Shown here in pieces: positions 2,953 to 19,404 of a DNA stretch of 64,000 nucleotides. The stretch comes from a virus, in the IMG/VR virus record IMGVR_UViG_3300028835_002196, positions 1-64,000 of that record. One strand, written 5' to 3'. The first letter of the stretch is position 1. Each line of letters opens with the position of its first letter. The translations under genes and the position numbers were made by a program. The notes below the pieces were generated by a model. The model was not told the origin of the DNA. It was given only the letters and a program-made list of their open reading frames with translations, and did no database searches.

Positions 2953-3291
2953 TTATTTGAATAATTTATACGGGATATTACCCTTTACTCTGTACTCTTT
3001 TGAATTATTCCATGAGAAATATTTTGGTTCCAGTTTCTTTTCCATGGATTTAGTAACATCAACACGACAGGGGATCCTGCGAATATAACAATACGCTCCC
3101 AGGGGAACGTCAGGTTTTCCTTTAACCGTGAAAACAAGCATTGTTGTTTTGATGGTTGAGGTTTTCTCATGGTATTTGATTCTTTCAAATTTCCCACAAT
3201 AAGCCTTTGTTTTGATCAGTTTTCCTTCGGGGTACCGGCTAACAGCACACCCGGACAGGAGAATAAAAAGGATTAATATTTTAGTTTTCAT
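2953..3291 (-). CDS. Small phage lipoprotein
   Basis: 112 aa starting at ATG 3291. A longer upstream frame exists but has no secretion logic before MKTKILILFILLSGC. The lipobox LSGC places the lipidated Cys at residue 15, so the product is probably an envelope lipoprotein. The mature part has three further Cys (AYCGKF, GAYCYI, IPCRVD), possibly disulfide-bonded. The start overlaps the preceding Tat-leader gene by 11 bp. Last gene of the secreted-protein operon. A superinfection or envelope-modification role is possible but unproven. Confidence 0.75.
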   Translation of the reverse strand: MKTKILILFILLSGCAVSRYPEGKLIKTKAYCGKFERIKYHEKTSTIKTTMLVFTVKGKPDVPLGAYCYIRRIPCRVDVTKSMEKKLEPKYFSWNNSKEYRVKGNIPYKLFK

Positions 3292-3631
3292 TTTTATTTT
3301 TATTTTCCAGAGCAGCTTGAATCCTGAACCATGCCATTTGACTTTGATCAACAGCCTTTTTAATAGCCTCGATTCCAACTGTTCCTGTGCGATAGATATG
3401 TGTATAGTTAAGTGCCCAGCCCGGGGGATTTTGTAAAATTTCCAGATCTCCCACGCAAAGTTGTCCCGGAGCATAATATTTTGTAACACCATTCTTTCGT
3501 ACATAAGCCCATAGGCCTTCGCCACATCTGATTTCAGGAACCTCTTCGGCCAACACCTTAGCAACCGCAGGAGCAAAGATCAGCCCCAGGGTAACTACAC
3601 TTGTTTTTTTAAAAAAATCTCTTCTATCCAT
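3281..3631 (-). CDS. Tat-leader secreted protein 1
   Basis: 116 aa from ATG 3631. The N-terminus MDRRDFFKKTSVVTLGLIF carries a twin-arginine motif (RR-x-F-F-K) and a hydrophobic stretch ending AKVLA before acidic residues, like a Tat signal peptide. Two Cys (IRCGEG, GQLCVG) could form a disulfide outside the cytoplasm. It shares leader design with the genes at 3624, 4276 and 5051. The start eight codons further upstream would put extra residues before the RR motif and is less likely. Function unknown. Confidence 0.7.
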   Translation of the reverse strand: MDRRDFFKKTSVVTLGLIFAPAVAKVLAEEVPEIRCGEGLWAYVRKNGVTKYYAPGQLCVGDLEILQNPPGWALNYTHIYRTGTVGIEAIKKAVDQSQMAWFRIQAALENKNKNEN

Positions 3632-3857
3632 TGGGCCGGTTTTTAAAACATTCATTATAAGTTAATGGATATTGCATAATAAGATCATTATTTGTAATAA
3701 GACCAAATCCTGTTCTTCTACACTTAGGCACGATAACCCCATACAATACTTTTTGGGGCTTTATAGCCTTTTTAATAACCCCCGCAACAACCGCAGGAGC
3801 AATTATCACTCCCAGGGATGCAATGCCTATTTTTTGAAAAAACTTTCTTCTATCCAT
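3624..3857 (-). CDS. Tat-leader secreted protein 2
   Basis: 77 aa. The leader MDRRKFFQKIGIASLGVII has the RR-x-F-F motif and a hydrophobic core, then APAVVAGVIKKA. The C-terminal part contains MQYPLTYNECFKN, matching EYPLTYKESYKPS in the product at 5051-5527, so these two are paralogues beyond the leader. Its start shares bases with the stop of the next gene. Function unknown. Confidence 0.7.
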   Translation of the reverse strand: MDRRKFFQKIGIASLGVIIAPAVVAGVIKKAIKPQKVLYGVIVPKCRRTGFGLITNNDLIMQYPLTYNECFKNRPNG

Positions 3858-4060
3858 TACTCATTCATATAGGATAAATCCTCATGATCAGATAATGATT
3901 CCAATAAAAGATCTAGTGTTCTACAACCAAACCGGTCCTTTTCTCCAACATATAATATATAATTATAAGTAAGATCGTCATGTATTCTTATAGATACATT
4001 CTTTAGACCTTTTTCTTTAGCTGACTTAAAAATATCAGCTATCACTTTTACTTTTTCCAT
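3857..4060 (-). CDS. Small protein of unknown function
   Basis: 67 aa from ATG 4060 (MEKVKVIADIFKSAKEKG...), chosen over a start 16 codons upstream because the palindromic leader ATTGTAAAAACAATG sits on this ATG, as at two other genes. An amphipathic helix is followed by beta-like NVSIRIHDDLTYNYILYVGEK. No signal peptide, so cytoplasmic. Function unknown. Confidence 0.6.
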   Translation of the reverse strand: MEKVKVIADIFKSAKEKGLKNVSIRIHDDLTYNYILYVGEKDRFGCRTLDLLLESLSDHEDLSYMNE

Positions 4061-4072
4061 TGTTTTTACAAT
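4058..4072 (-). promoter_or_regulatory. Palindromic start-codon leader (copy 1)
   Basis: ATTGTAAAAACAATG on the minus strand: a 5-bp inverted repeat ATTGT/ACAAT around AAAA, ending inside the start codon. Identical 15-mers occur at 10434-10448 and 59352-59366, each on the start of an unrelated gene. It may be a translation-initiation element for this phage. Confidence 0.4.
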
Positions 4073-4077
4073 TTTGT

Positions 4078-4254
4078 TTATTTTCCTTTCTCGTGATCGT
4101 CCCGCCAAAACTTTTTTCTTGCCCGCGTTGCTTTATCAAAAGTTTTCAGGCAATCTGTCAGATATTCTGCAAGAACAAAATCGGGAGTATCACTACCATT
4201 TTCAAGACTGTTCTTGTTTATTAGGTCCTGCAATTCTTTTCTGAATTTTTCCAT
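4078..4254 (-). CDS. Conserved 58-aa phage protein
   Basis: 58 aa (MEKFRKELQDLINKNSLEN...). The segment NSLENGSDTPDFVLAEYLTDCL is close to a small conserved protein found across many phages and prophages; the ensuing FDKATRARKKF helix is also typical. Cytoplasmic, likely helical; function unknown. It lies in the correct strand and spacing between genes at 3857 and 4276. Confidence 0.75.
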   Translation of the reverse strand: MEKFRKELQDLINKNSLENGSDTPDFVLAEYLTDCLKTFDKATRARKKFWRDDHEKGK

Positions 4255-4275
4255 TTTGTTTGTTTTTGACGCTTG

Positions 4276-4611
4276 TTACTTGTAAGAATTATTATTTTTC
4301 CATCCTTTTCTATCAGTAATTTTTAATAATTCAATCATATCCATATGACCATATAGTTTTCGTAGGGTTTCAAAAACTTCATCACTATAAACATCCTGAA
4401 CCATTCTTATCTCTAAATGTTCTTGATACATCTTCCTGGCCTGTTTAATATGCCACTCCCTTCTGAGTTGTTTTATTCTCTCATCGAGCTCTTTTATATT
4501 AAAGCCCGGTAAACCTGGTTGTTCAGATATAGCCTTAATAACAACACCAGGAAGAAGGGCTGCCCCTGCAAGGGTAGCACCTATGTTCTTAAAAAACTTT
4601 CTTCTTTTCAT
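4276..4611 (-). CDS. Tat-leader secreted protein 3
   Basis: 111 aa. The leader MKRRKFFKNIGATLAGAALL has the RR-x-F-F-K motif, a hydrophobic core and PGVVIKA. The mature part is charged and helical (ELDERIKQLRREWHIKQARKM), unlike the other three Tat-leader proteins. The start overlaps the end of the upstream gene by 23 bp. Function unknown. Confidence 0.7.
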   Translation of the reverse strand: MKRRKFFKNIGATLAGAALLPGVVIKAISEQPGLPGFNIKELDERIKQLRREWHIKQARKMYQEHLEIRMVQDVYSDEVFETLRKLYGHMDMIELLKITDRKGWKNNNSYK

Positions 4612-4852
4612 TTTTTGCCATATAATTTCTAAAATCTCGTGACATGTTTACAAGATTTTTTACAGTTTCTTTTTTTCGATCCTCTGTAAACCCCCCTGAT
4701 TCTAATGAATCAATAGTCTTATTTAAGGTTTGTAAAAATTTATATTTAAAACCGTAAAAAGTCCAGCATTTAGGCATTTGATATAAAACATTCACATTAC
4801 CCCGGAAGATATCTGCTACCGTTCCTTTTAAGCAATATAGCCATTTATCCAT
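4589..4852 (-). CDS. Small protein of unknown function
   Basis: 87 aa from ATG 4852 (MDKWLYCLKGTVADIF...), giving an 8-bp overlap with the stop of the upstream gene, the normal overlap here; a start 27 codons earlier would overlap deeply. Helical C-terminus with KKETVKNLVNMSRDF. No signal or known motif. Confidence 0.55.
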   Translation of the reverse strand: MDKWLYCLKGTVADIFRGNVNVLYQMPKCWTFYGFKYKFLQTLNKTIDSLESGGFTEDRKKETVKNLVNMSRDFRNYMAKNEKKKVF

Positions 4853-5042
4853 CAAGATTGCTTTTAGATTCTGACATTGACATAGTTGGTCTTGTATCCC
4901 TGTACATATATTGTATAAGGGCTTTATTAGCATCTTCAGCAGTTGTTATTAACTGATCGATCACCTCGAGGGGATCTTCGCCTCTGACCAACATCTGAAC
5001 AACTGTATTAAAAAGTGCAGATGTTTTATATTCTTCTGTCAT
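4845..5042 (-). CDS. Small conserved-looking phage protein
   Basis: 65 aa from ATG 5042, nine bases after the upstream stop (MTEEYKTSALFNTVVQM...). The segment LVRGEDPLEVIDQLI followed by EDANKALIQYM looks like a two-helix protein seen in other Bacteroidota phages. Cytoplasmic; function unknown. Confidence 0.6.
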   Translation of the reverse strand: MTEEYKTSALFNTVVQMLVRGEDPLEVIDQLITTAEDANKALIQYMYRDTRPTMSMSESKSNLDG

Positions 5043-5050
5043 TTGTCTGA

Positions 5051-5527
5051 TTATTTTTGTTTTATAGGAAACAATACACTGTCCCATAGTCTTAACTTTG
5101 TTCTGGAAAGACTTGCTTTATCTATTAAAAAAGTAATTCCATTACCGGCACCAGCTCTAGGAATATCTTCATTAACAACTATTATAGAATGTCCGGGATT
5201 TTCCTCTTTATGAGAAGGGGGAGGAGTCTTGCTTTCCTCTGAAAACGAATTTGAAAAGACTAAAAACACCTCTTTTTTTCTAATAACAGGAAATTCCTCT
5301 AATTTATTACATGGAATTATAGTCACTTCATTTTCTTTTAATACAGTAACAAAGCCTATTATAAAATCATGGGAAGGTTTATAAGATTCCTTGTAAGTTA
5401 AGGGATATTCAAAAATTTTCGGATCCACGGGAGGCTCAAGTGATTTGAATGCACCTAATACTTTTGGGGTAACACTAGCCCCCACACCTATGCAAATTAT
5501 ATTAGCTAAAAATTTTCTTCTTTCCAT
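5051..5527 (-). CDS. Tat-leader secreted protein 4
   Basis: 158 aa. The leader MERRKFLANIICIGVGASV has the canonical RR-x-F-L form, then TPKVLGAF. It shares YPLTYxExxK with the 77-aa product at 3624-3857. The mature domain is beta-rich (FIIGFVTVLKENEVTIIPC, EVFLVFSN, HSIIVVNEDIPRAG). Longest of the four Tat-leader proteins. Its start is one base from the upstream stop. Function unknown. Confidence 0.7.
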   Translation of the reverse strand: MERRKFLANIICIGVGASVTPKVLGAFKSLEPPVDPKIFEYPLTYKESYKPSHDFIIGFVTVLKENEVTIIPCNKLEEFPVIRKKEVFLVFSNSFSEESKTPPPSHKEENPGHSIIVVNEDIPRAGAGNGITFLIDKASLSRTKLRLWDSVLFPIKQK

Positions 5528-8233: not shown

Positions 8234-8644
8234 TTACTTTTCAAATTCAATAACAGCGTTTAATACATCTGTATATCTTTCAAACCAACCCATCATCATT
8301 TTACGCATGAGCCCAAAATCCTCACCTTTTGCATATAGTCCAATAATAGGAATACCTTTAGCGTAAGCCATTCCGCACTCGGCTGCTGCGTCTTTCCCGG
8401 AAGGAGAAATATATATAACCAGATCAGATTTCATCACTCCTTCGGAATCATACATAAAAGACTGATTTGATTCAGTTGAATTTACCCAGGTTTCAAAATC
8501 AAATTTTTTTGTAATATGATTATGATTTTCACCATAATTATTTTCGACAAACGATAATACTTCGTGACCTGCTTCACGCAGAAAAACTGTAAGCATTTCT
8601 ACAGTATGCTGATTTTTCCAAGAGCTTGCTATATATATTTTCAT
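8234..8644 (-). CDS. Nucleoside 2-deoxyribosyltransferase-like protein
   Basis: 136 aa, close to the usual length of this family. MKIYIASSWKN opens a Rossmann-like fold; SDLVIYISPSGKDAAAECGM contains the conserved D and the putative catalytic Glu (about residue 89); GIPIIGLYAKGEDFGLM is the conserved end. The family cleaves or transfers deoxyribose between bases, or hydrolyses N-glycosidic bonds in nucleotides. In a phage this could serve nucleotide salvage, base modification or turnover of nucleotide signals. Its start is 27 bp from the first pentamer array. Confidence 0.75.
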   Translation of the reverse strand: MKIYIASSWKNQHTVEMLTVFLREAGHEVLSFVENNYGENHNHITKKFDFETWVNSTESNQSFMYDSEGVMKSDLVIYISPSGKDAAAECGMAYAKGIPIIGLYAKGEDFGLMRKMMMGWFERYTDVLNAVIEFEK

Positions 8645-8670: not shown

Positions 8671-8740
8671 AAAACTAAACTTTACTTTACTATACAACGC
8701 CAGACGGAACTACACGGTACTATGCGATACACCACTAAAC
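8671..8740. repeat. Pentamer-phased array A (NNNAC x14)
   Basis: Fourteen consecutive 5-nt units. Twelve end in AC and two in GC (aacgc, tatgc); the first three bases of each unit vary freely. On the minus strand the unit is GTNNN. It begins aaaac taaac tttac tttac, nearly the same opening as arrays B-D. It lies just upstream of the deoxyribosyltransferase-like start codon. Confidence 0.9.
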
Positions 8741-8775
8741 TCAATATTTTATTTAATTCCTTCAATTCTAATTAT
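8741..8775. repeat. 35-nt AT-rich spacer S1
   Basis: Separates arrays A and B and keeps the 5-nt register (35 = 7 x 5). It differs from spacer S2 (8876-8910) at two positions. On the minus strand one frame reads LELKELNKILS with a stop in the adjoining pentamer, so it may be the relic of a gene end. Confidence 0.85.
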
Positions 8776-8875
8776 AAAACTATACTTTACTATACGCTAC
8801 CTCACACCACAAGACCTCACAATACTCAACATCACCCTACTCGACGATACGTCACACCACCATACAGCACTCAAC
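8776..8875. repeat. Pentamer-phased array B (NNNAC x20)
   Basis: Twenty consecutive units, all ending in AC. The first eleven are near-identical in order to the first eleven units of array C (three differing positions), after which the two arrays diverge completely while keeping the AC register. Confidence 0.92.
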
Positions 8876-8910
8876 TCAATATTTTATTTAATTTCTTTAA
8901 TTCTAATTAT
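8876..8910. repeat. 35-nt AT-rich spacer S2
   Basis: 33 of 35 bases identical to S1 at 8741-8775, at a distance of 135 bp (27 pentamers). With the following units it forms a duplicated block of about 90 bp. Confidence 0.85.
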
Positions 8911-9070
8911 AAAACTATACTTTACTTTACGCTACCTCACACCACAAGACTTCACGATACTCAACAACACTCTACTTGACAAAACTTTACATCACAAAAC
9001 GTAACTTTACAACACTACACCCTACCCTACAAAACCACACAACACCATGCTCAACAGCACGGTACATTAC
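8911..9070. repeat. Pentamer-phased array C (NNNAC x32)
   Basis: Thirty-two consecutive units, 31 ending in AC and one in GC (catgc). The last unit, attac, contains the stop codon of the RAMP-like gene on the minus strand, so the array abuts the coding region with no gap. Confidence 0.92.
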
Positions 9071-9642
9071 TTAAATTCTTTAATTTTTTCAGCAACAAAT
9101 CTTCCAAACATACCATTGCAAGTAGGCCTGAAACTTCCAATCCCACAATGCGTACCAGCATATTTCAACACATCTTCTATTGTTGGCTTTGTAATCGTAT
9201 CATTATCAATCCACAATTCAAAATCAACCTTTAAATTGAGCCACTTGGGCCTGATCACGATAACTCTTGCCCCGGCTTTACGATTCCAGACGCTTCGCTT
9301 ATCTATAATATCCCAGGGGGGAAGCCATATTTTTTCCGGTTTAACAAAGAACATAGCTGCAACAATATTTTTCATAGACTTACGGCTATTTCCAACCTTC
9401 GCCTTCAAGTATGCTCCTGCATTGATCATTGCTCCACGCAAATGTTCGGATGGTAAATAATGCTTTTTTTCCTTCATATCGTAGTAAGAATGAAACTCAG
9501 CCCTGACATTATCAGGTTGAGAAACCTCTGGTCGTTCAATGATCGCACCACGTCTTTTTTCCCATTCGTCAAGGGTTTCGTCATCCATGCGATGTTGCAT
9601 GTATGGCGTTGTGCCAATAATTTCTACTTTGTACTTCTTCAT
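9067..9642 (-). CDS. Conserved phage protein, RAMP/Cas7-like candidate
   Basis: 191 aa from ATG 9642. The GTG start further upstream would add residues translated from array D and is rejected. It opens with a beta strand VEIIGTTPYMQHR, has YLPSEHLRGAMINAGAYLKAK in the middle, and ends GTHCGIGSFRPTCNGMFGRF. This layout (TP-L/M-x-H start, LP-x-x-L-x-x-A core, late G-x-G-x-x-RP) matches a widespread phage family of unknown function whose glycine-rich end recalls RAMP proteins such as Cas7. The RAMP relation is my inference. It is the only gene bracketed by pentamer arrays on both sides. Confidence 0.65.
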   Translation of the reverse strand: MKKYKVEIIGTTPYMQHRMDDETLDEWEKRRGAIIERPEVSQPDNVRAEFHSYYDMKEKKHYLPSEHLRGAMINAGAYLKAKVGNSRKSMKNIVAAMFFVKPEKIWLPPWDIIDKRSVWNRKAGARVIVIRPKWLNLKVDFELWIDNDTITKPTIEDVLKYAGTHCGIGSFRPTCNGMFGRFVAEKIKEFK

Positions 9643-9657
9643 AATATTTGTATTAGT

Positions 9658-9787
9658 TAAACAAAACTTTACTTTACTAGACGACACATCACTGAACTGT
9701 ACTTCACAAAACAATACGCTACTGGACGCTACTTGACTAAACTGCACCCTACTCTACTATACCCCACATTACGCCACAGAACGAGAC
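9658..9787. repeat. Pentamer-phased array D (NNNAC x26)
   Basis: Twenty-six consecutive units, all ending in AC, filling the gap between the RAMP-like gene start and the small gene at 9795. On the transcribed minus strand it reads GTNNN repeated and would be the 5' leader of the RAMP-like mRNA, ending 15 nt before its ATG. The variable triplets show no obvious order. Confidence 0.93.
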
Positions 9788-17824: not shown

Positions 17825-19404
17825 ACCTGTTAGCTGGTGCTGGTGGAACTACCACCGGTGCATTAGCTGTTAAGGGAATTATAGTTGTCTGGGCATTGAA
17901 TCATTCCAAAGAAGCTATATTCACTCACCAGGTCAATCACCCCAACACCGAACATTTCCACGCTGATCTGGCAGAAATGGATGTAACTAAACTCTGCCCG
18001 GTTGATGGTTTATTTGCAGGTCTGGAATGCACGAACTTCAGCAATGCCAAAGGAGGTTTATCAAGAGATGCTGACAGCAGAATGTTAGCATACGAACTGG
18101 ACAAATATATAATTCATTGCCTGCCCAAGTATATAATGATTGAGAATGTAAGAGAGTTTCTGGATTGGGGACCACTGAGAATTAAGGAAGATCAAGCCAG
18201 ATCGACCAAAAAATACTCTGCCTTAGCTATAGTCGAAAAAGGTAAGAAGAAAGGTGAATATGTTATTATTCCAATCAAAGAACGCAAAAAAGAATATTAT
18301 AATAAATGGATCGAACACGTTAAAGGTTTGGGATATATAAATTATCAGTATAGAATGTTGAACTCGGCAGATTATGGCTCATTCACCTCCAGGAAGCGTT
18401 ATTTCGGCATTTTTTCCCTGCCCGGTTATCCAATATCATTTCCTTTACAAACTCATCACAGGGACGGAATCAACGGTTTTAAGAAGTGGATGGCATGTAA
18501 GAAAAAGATCGACCTGAAAAATACCGGGGAATCCATGTTCGGCAGGGAATTTAATCTCAATCTACCTAAACAGGTAAGGAAACCATTAGTAAAACGCTCG
18601 ATCAGCAGGATCATTAACGGTATGAAAAAACATTGCCCGGAAATGCTGCAGTACATTGTTAAGTATTATGGATCAGGAGGAGGACAGCACAGCTCGATCA
18701 ACACACCATTGGATACCATTACAACCAAAGCTCGACATGCTCTTGTTACCCTGAAAAGAGAACAATTTATCAGCGAACATTTTTGGGGACAGGATCCTTC
18801 ACAAAAAACGGATAAACCCCTCAACGTGATAACGACAAAAGAATCCAAACAGCTTGTTACGGTTGAAAAAAAACAGTTCATTAACCAGTGTTGGGGAAAC
18901 GATTATAATCATTCCGGAATAAAAGAACCCCTGAAAACAATAACGACTACTAATAAGCATCAGCTTGTTACTATTGAAAAGCAACAATTTCTCACCCAAT
19001 ATTATGGCAGGGATAATGCCAATCAGAATCTTAAAGAACCAATAAGAACTATCACCACTTGGAACACTCACCGGTTGGTCACAGTCGAAAAACAACAATT
19101 CATATCGACATACTTTGGTAAAAGCGGAGCACATTCTCTTGATAAACCCTTGGGAACTATTACAACAGAACCCAAACATGCTCTTACAACTGTCCTGGCT
19201 AATGGAGATTTTGATATTAAGGTACGTTTCCTTACCCCTGCAGAGCTGGGGGATATAACGGGATTCCCGAAAAATTATCAATGGTACGGTAGTAATAGGT
19301 TGCGAATATGGATGATAGGCAATGCTGTTCCTATTCCAATGGCTAAGGCACTTATTGAGCAAATTAAAATCGAATTTATTAACCTTAAACCCATTAAATC
19401 ATGA
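17815..19404 (+). CDS. C5-cytosine DNA methyltransferase with five C-terminal repeats
   Basis: About 529 aa if started at ATT 17815. Motif I (ILDLLAGAGGTTTG) lies upstream of the first ATG (17896), so that ATG cannot be the true start; the frame is open back to a stop at 17797-17799 with no ATG, GTG or TTG. Motif IV is GLECTNFSNAKGG with the catalytic Cys (about residue 72) but E in place of the usual P; motif VI is MIENVREF; motif VIII QYRMLNSADYGSFTSRKRY; motif X GNAVPIPMA. Between VIII and X are five ~40-aa repeats (PLxTITTxxxHxLVTxExxQF). Methylates phage DNA, probably against host restriction. Confidence 0.8.
   Translation: MILDLLAGAGGTTTGALAVKGIIVVWALNHSKEAIFTHQVNHPNTEHFHADLAEMDVTKLCPVDGLFAGLECTNFSNAKGGLSRDADSRMLAYELDKYIIHCLPKYIMIENVREFLDWGPLRIKEDQARSTKKYSALAIVEKGKKKGEYVIIPIKERKKEYYNKWIEHVKGLGYINYQYRMLNSADYGSFTSRKRYFGIFSLPGYPISFPLQTHHRDGINGFKKWMACKKKIDLKNTGESMFGREFNLNLPKQVRKPLVKRSISRIINGMKKHCPEMLQYIVKYYGSGGGQHSSINTPLDTITTKARHALVTLKREQFISEHFWGQDPSQKTDKPLNVITTKESKQLVTVEKKQFINQCWGNDYNHSGIKEPLKTITTTNKHQLVTIEKQQFLTQYYGRDNANQNLKEPIRTITTWNTHRLVTVEKQQFISTYFGKSGAHSLDKPLGTITTEPKHALTTVLANGDFDIKVRFLTPAELGDITGFPKNYQWYGSNRLRIWMIGNAVPIPMAKALIEQIKIEFINLKPIKS

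What the first reader, a model, noticed from the sequence alone, without database searches (positions are those of the whole stretch)
8671..9070. Pentamer-phased NNNAC arrays A-C: a degenerate tandem repeat with fixed spacing and free content
Between two genes, 66 units of five bases run in three arrays with 35-nt in-register spacers. Every unit ends in C; the fourth base is A in 63 of 66 and G in three. The first three bases of each unit look unconstrained. Ordinary tandem repeats conserve the whole unit; here only a dinucleotide every 5 bp is kept, on average twice per helical turn. Stops occur in the minus frames, so a protein does not explain it. Selection on spacing rather than sequence suggests a protein or RNA-protein filament that reads one base pair step every 5 nt; TRAP binding to NAGNN repeats is the nearest known analogy.
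Basis: partly seen in the sequence, partly recalled or inferred. Interest (0 to 1): 0.93.

Follow-up and report, generated by a model that had tools for sequence, protein, structure and literature searches.

The report
Phage RNA-guide arrays (VIPR variant)
The odd five-base-phased DNA is a set of guide-RNA genes of VIPR, a phage-encoded relative of CRISPR described in a 2026 preprint; in this branch each five-base unit appears to spell three consecutive target bases, whereas the published type reads two and skips one.

Summary
In detail: 66 GYNNN units on the minus strand (63 GT, 3 GC) in three arrays, plus a fourth array of 26 units (9658-9787) on the other side of the gene. The gene at 9067-9642 encodes a Vipr protein. 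It matches the solved SUSP1 Vipr by sequence (phmmer E 1e-7; profile E 1e-16), shares one PHROG family with it, and its predicted fold matches CRISPR Csm3/Cas7 RAMP proteins. The arrays are therefore VIPR guide-RNA (vrRNA) genes. A blind DNA-pattern search supports this: 60 of 80 loci with degenerate pentamer arrays carry a Vipr-like gene, against 0 of 40 with plain repeats.

All 15 vipr copies of this branch (phages plus one Bacteroidota MAG) have GYNNN arrays and share no other nearby gene. The published motif is GGY/NN, with one target base skipped per unit. Here the third variable base is as free as the others. Only the pair N3(i)-N1(i+1), which GY separates in the array, shows the genomic nearest-neighbour signature (z 4.8; window alone P 0.02). 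So successive triplets are adjacent in the source DNA. Three guides of relatives spell the start of DUF2188 genes. A gap-free triplet code is inferred; pairing was not tested, and no target of the window's own guides was found.

The parts
9067..9642 (-). vipr gene, 191 aa RAMP-fold protein with C-terminal glycine-rich loop GIGSFRPTCNGMFGRF
   Evidence: PDB 36pp SUSP1 Vipr E 9.8e-8; profile without SUSP1 E 1.3e-16; same PHROG 4652 as SUSP1 Vipr; Foldseek to Csm3/Cas7 chains E 4e-7
9658..9787 (-). array D, 26 perfect GTNNN units, vrRNA gene(s) upstream of vipr; joined triplets read LSGNGIRRALQSPSIFETSDVLKKFL
8911..9070 (-). array C, 32 GYNNN units (one GC unit), vrRNA gene(s) just downstream of vipr, overlapping its stop codon
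8876..8910 (-). 35-nt AT-rich spacer between C and B; possible vrRNA tail, leader or promoter; no stable fold predicted
8776..8875 (-). array B, 20 GTNNN units; 3' half homologous to array C, differing only in NNN
8741..8775 (-). 35-nt AT-rich spacer between B and A, 33/35 identical to the other spacer
8671..8740 (-). array A, 14 GYNNN units (two GC units)

Best explanation
This is a stand-alone VIPR system of a phage, probably of a Bacteroidota host: one Vipr (RAMP) gene flanked by four arrays that encode vrRNAs. Shown here: the protein is a Vipr homologue, and such arrays are specific to vipr loci. Inferred from the published VIPR work: the array is transcribed on the vipr strand, Vipr subunits line up along the RNA at 5-nt steps, the constant nucleotides are held by the protein, and the variable ones pair with double-stranded DNA of a competing element and repress it. 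The new part: in this branch the constant element is GY only, and all three other bases of each unit carry target information. Successive triplets are adjacent in the source DNA (shown statistically), so one 5-nt unit reads three contiguous target bases with no skipped base. That N3 actually pairs is inferred.
For: Vipr identity. Blind array pattern predicts vipr: 60 of 80 degenerate-array loci against 0 of 40 plain-repeat loci. All 15 vipr copies of the branch have GYNNN arrays on the vipr strand and share no other neighbour gene. N3 is as variable as N1 and N2. Only N3(i)-N1(i+1) follows adjacent-base statistics: z 4.8, leave-one-locus-out z at least 4.0, offsets 2-6 and the eight other position pairs negative; arrays with two variable bases lack this strong signal. 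Three guides spell GKNQHV/KKNQHV, the start of DUF2188 genes, with all N3 at two-fold codons synonymous-compatible.
Against: No target of the window's own guides was found in viral contigs, phage or plasmid records. Pooled stop-codon test on joined triplets not significant. Transcription, RNA binding and pairing at N3 were not tested. Arrays C and D are longer than the published 9-16 units, so guide ends are uncertain. The neighbour statistic shows adjacency in the source of the guide, not pairing.
Confidence: 0.75

Rival explanations
1. VIPR with the published 1-nt-skip rule: N1N2 pair, while N3 lies opposite the skipped base and does not pair; N3 holds target information only because guides were copied recently from contiguous DNA.
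For: Same 5 RNA: 3 DNA geometry as SUSP1; in the three DUF2188 guides N3 sits at the codon wobble position, where the preprint finds the skipped base (PMC13142463).
Against: In SUSP1-type arrays this position is a fixed G, here it is free and informative across 15 loci; a useless position would be expected to drift away from the target, yet the N3-N1 signal is as clear as the within-unit signals.
Confidence: 0.22
2. A leader or operator array bound by a TRAP-like ring or a dsDNA-binding filament that reads one dinucleotide per 5 nt, with meaningless triplets.
For: Fixed GU or GC every 5 nt; arrays precede genes.
Against: The linked protein is a RAMP, not TRAP; triplets carry neighbour information across units and spell conserved gene starts.
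Confidence: 0.01
3. A decaying pentamer microsatellite without function.
For: Pentamer microsatellites exist in the same scan (40 loci).
Against: Constant positions do not change between diverged copies while NNN do; register kept in all relatives; plain-repeat loci never carry vipr.
Confidence: 0.01

Closest known systems
VIPR of Escherichia phage SUSP1 and the P. fulva prophage (preprint PMC13142463; PDB 36pp)
   Same: Homologous Vipr protein of about 20 kDa; intergenic pentamer arrays on both sides of vipr; constant motif ending in GY; hypervariable remainder; phage-encoded; 5 RNA bases per 3 source bases.
   Different: Constant motif GY instead of GGY; three informative bases per unit instead of two; no skipped base in the source reading; arrays of 14-32 units; no common accessory (vap) gene; no predicted structured tail in the spacer.
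Class 1 CRISPR Cas7/Csm3 backbone proteins
   Same: RAMP fold by structure comparison; RNA-guided filament by analogy.
   Different: No palindromic repeats and no cas genes seen; constant bases recur every 5 nt inside the guide.
TRAP with NAGNN repeats
   Same: Short constant motif in RNA every 5 nt.
   Different: Unrelated protein fold; other motif; number of units varies; the variable bases carry target information.

Membership tests
VIPR | Vipr RAMP protein (RRM core, glycine-rich loop) | tested here: met
VIPR | Tandem pentamer array with constant and hypervariable positions beside vipr | tested here: met
VIPR | Constant motif GGY with NN, or a related consensus (preprint wording) | tested here: inconclusive
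   Motif is GYNNN: the first G of GGY is free. The preprint's fig. S17 with related motifs could not be read
VIPR | 9-16 units followed by an invariable 3' tail | tested here: inconclusive
   Units 14, 20, 32, 26; AT-rich 3' cap of about four units; spacer repeated but unstructured
VIPR | One-nucleotide-skip target code | tested here: not met
   Neighbour statistics fit adjacency of triplets, not a skipped base. This test is on the source sequence of the guides, not on binding; the skip rule was demonstrated only for SUSP1-type systems
VIPR | vrRNA expression, Vipr binding, DNA-targeted repression | not testable with these tools
   Needs RNA sequencing and reporter assays
VIPR | vap accessory gene | tested here: not met
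   No neighbour shared by the 15 loci; the preprint calls vap typical, not universal
CRISPR-Cas class 1 | CRISPR repeat-spacer array and cas operon | tested here: not met
   No such array in the region; no shared neighbour genes; no PADLOC hit for vipr
TRAP/NAGNN system | TRAP protein and NAG triplets | tested here: not met
   Motif is GY; the protein is a RAMP

The most novel reading that the evidence does not exclude
This branch of VIPR uses a gap-free triplet code: each GYNNN unit of the guide RNA pairs with three consecutive bases of double-stranded DNA, so a guide is contiguous target sequence interrupted by GY every three bases. It implies some way of writing target DNA into the array with GY inserted every three bases.
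Probability: 0.7. Interest if true: 0.88.

Novelty: new variant of a known kind. Interest (0 to 1): 0.8.

Why it matters
VIPR is proposed as an ancestor-like relative of CRISPR whose hallmark is a non-contiguous code. A branch that encodes contiguous triplets would show that this code evolves, would sit between VIPR and the contiguous guides of CRISPR, raises the information per unit from two to three bases, and gives a direct way to read targets. The work also shows that such guide arrays can be found by DNA pattern alone, and that the spacing of target bases can be read from neighbour statistics without knowing any target.

Tried and rejected
TRAP-like and dsDNA-filament readings (rejected on fold, homology and the information content of the triplets). 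Microsatellite drift. Local search of all fetched loci for targets under five skip rules: only chance-level matches. Pattern scans of viral contigs with N1N2x for array D (0 hits) and for one DUF2188 guide (chance hits only). Translated-guide scans, blastn of joined guides against phages and plasmids, and a guide pattern with 3 mismatches in the MAG and in 149 genomes of its order: no target. Pooled stop-codon test on joined triplets: not significant; guides may address both strands and any frame, and the sample is small. Single-sequence AF2 model useless (pLDDT 34); alignment-based model usable (pLDDT 77). No Rfam family, hence no known hammerhead, in the array region (also none at gathering threshold in seven sources); no stable fold in the spacer; sigma-70 promoter scan at chance level. 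Profile search in 395 genomes of the class found vipr of this branch only in the MAG already known.

Full report
What is there. Two 35-nt spacers keep the register. A fourth array, D, 26 perfect units, lies at 9658-9787, upstream of the gene at 9067-9642 that the arrays flank. Random sequence of the same dinucleotide content gives runs of at most 6 units; the window gives 27, 26 and 20, all of the same dinucleotide at period 5. The record (76,246 bases) has the pattern nowhere else. Arrays B and C are diverged copies: 10 differences in their last 75 nt, all in NNN, none in GT, with spacers 33/35 identical.

The pattern is widespread. Forty of the 120 loci examined (window included) are plain repeats; 80 have degenerate arrays with one of several constant sets: ACCNN, ACNNG, ACNNC, ACNNA, ACNNN and a few others. 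Within a locus all arrays lie on one strand.

Identity. A paper search returned a 2026 preprint, PMC13142463, on VIPR systems: a phage-encoded RAMP protein, Vipr, and vrRNAs made of 9-16 GGY/NN pentamers, which recognise double-stranded DNA with the two variable bases of each unit while one target base is skipped. The 191-aa product of 9067-9642 matches Felixounavirus-type phage proteins over 99% of its length at about 30% identity, the SUSP1 protein ALH47069 (E 2e-14 in a two-sequence comparison; profile comparison 98.5% probability), and the PDB chain 36pp_D named 'SUSP1 Vipr protein' (phmmer E 9.8e-8; a profile without SUSP1, E 1.3e-16). It falls in the same PHROG as SUSP1 Vipr. An AlphaFold2 model from a 12-sequence alignment (pLDDT 77) matches CRISPR RAMP proteins: the 50 listed PDB hits are all chains of CRISPR type III, type VII or Cas7-11 complexes, best E 4e-7. 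Pfam and PADLOC have no model that hits it.

Link between arrays and Vipr. A Vipr profile run over the loci that the DNA pattern alone had fetched hits 60 of 80 loci with degenerate arrays (E 4e-9 to 4e-63, nearly always within 650 bp of an array) and 0 of 40 loci with plain repeats. Some loci are copies of one another, so 60 is not a count of independent cases, but the contrast is clear: the arrays as a class are VIPR guide arrays. SUSP1 itself shows them in the held copy.

This branch. Thirteen IMG/VR contigs and one MAG contig titled Draconibacterium orientale (Bacteroidota) carry vipr copies 47-65% identical to the window's; one copy, in L141, is broken. All have GYNNN arrays beside vipr on the vipr strand. 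Apart from antisense shadow ORFs of vipr, no neighbour is shared by more than three of the 15 loci, so vipr plus arrays behaves as a stand-alone cassette without a common accessory gene. Over 557 units the constant part is G (100%) and Y (90% T, 10% C), and the three other positions have entropies 1.91, 1.89 and 1.86 bits. The position that is the first G of GGY in SUSP1 is free here. The last four units of an array are AT-rich (94, 83, 78, 76% A+T from the last inwards, against 59% elsewhere) and often run into a T stretch, which gives the guide a polarity.

Decoding. If triplets of neighbouring units are adjacent in the DNA from which the guide derives, then N3 of one unit and N1 of the next, separated by GY in the array, should show the dinucleotide bias of adjacent bases in genomes. 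They do: z 4.83 over 479 pairs, none of 1000 within-array permutations as high. The eight other position pairs and offsets of two to six units do not; leaving out any one locus keeps z at 4.0 or more; the window alone gives z 2.0, P 0.02. The same pair does not fit lag 2 or lag 3, and N2-N1 read as neighbours gives z 0.0. Joined triplets also score above unit-shuffled ones under Markov models, less strongly once the AT-rich ends are dropped. Arrays with two variable bases lack this strong signal; GGYNN arrays fit lag 2 weakly (P 0.019 to 0.032) and lag 1 no better, in line with but not proof of the published one-base skip.

Targets. Three guides of two relatives, and no other array of the branch, contain the N1N2 series AA AA CA CA GT. 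Read as triplets they give GKNQHVIQQ, GKNQHVMKQ and KKNQHVVPP, the start of DUF2188 proteins (PF09954), present in 13 of 198 Bacteroidia-class genomes examined and on viral contigs. One genome copy matches the first guide at 23 of 27 bases, 7 of 9 at N3. All 12 N3 at two-fold degenerate codons are synonymous-compatible; with the branch's N3 composition this has a chance of about 2e-4 (my arithmetic; the family was noticed by eye first). Another guide reads AAGGAGGGTCAAAATGAGTAAC, with the look of a ribosome-binding site and start codon. For the window, D gives one open frame of 26 codons and C one of 32 codons on the opposite strand, but no target was found in viral contigs, phage or plasmid records, and a pooled stop-codon test was not significant. 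DUF2188 is thus the best supported target family of the branch, not of this phage.

Mechanism, with status of steps. Vipr protein and arrays: shown. Contiguous triplets from source DNA: shown statistically. Transcription from the vipr strand, filament assembly, extrusion of GY, pairing of all three bases and repression of competing elements: inferred from homology to SUSP1 VIPR. The main alternative is that N3 was recorded at acquisition but lies opposite the skipped base and does not pair. How target DNA becomes an array with GY every three bases is unknown.

Novelty. The system is VIPR, public since April 2026. What appears new is the GYNNN branch with a gap-free triplet reading. The main text of the preprint describes GGY/NN 'or a related consensus (fig. 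S17)' and the one-base-skip rule; the supplement could not be read, so the motif may be listed there.

Noticed in passing
L005 7886-8424, L031 966-1918, L062 5971-7586 and similar loci: Other vipr loci have constant sets GACNN or CACNN with AC on the vipr strand, and others GTT-type (ACNNA on the other strand), so the VIPR motif varies more widely than GGY; the sequence rules of these types were not decoded.
   Followed up: partly
L135 5800-5914; L140 5783-6037: Two phages carry three different guides that spell the 5' end of DUF2188 genes; the reason why this small protein is a repeated target is unknown.
   Followed up: partly
window 3281-5527 (minus strand): Four small ORFs (3281-3655, 3624-3857, 4276-4611, 5051-5527) begin with similar M-x-R-R-K/D-F-F/L leaders that resemble twin-arginine signal peptides; no PHROG family.
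   Followed up: partly
window 17896-19404: The ORF looks like a DNA cytosine methyltransferase with several internal repeats of about 37 residues in its middle part (seen by eye in the translation).
   Followed up: no
window 8234-8644: Nucleoside 2-deoxyribosyltransferase-like gene just downstream of array A (Pfam PF05014 below cut-off, PHROG 12607); not shared by the other vipr loci.
   Followed up: partly
L139 5700-6103: A tmRNA gene lies about 500 bp downstream of vipr on this phage contig (Rfam).
   Followed up: no
L141 4953-5546: The vipr reading frame is broken into two ORFs and the neighbouring arrays are short (8 units), as if the system were decaying.
   Followed up: no
L010 1289-2423 (reverse complement): More than ten GGTNN blocks separated by a repeated spacer attaaattcattaaaccattcctt: a long multi-guide array whose spacer may be the constant tail.
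   Followed up: no
L006, L012, L018, L026, L030, L033, L034, L047, L048, L060 and ten more: Twenty loci with degenerate pentamer arrays have no Vipr-profile hit in the stretch held; gene outside the stretch, a more distant Vipr, or unrelated repeats.
   Followed up: no
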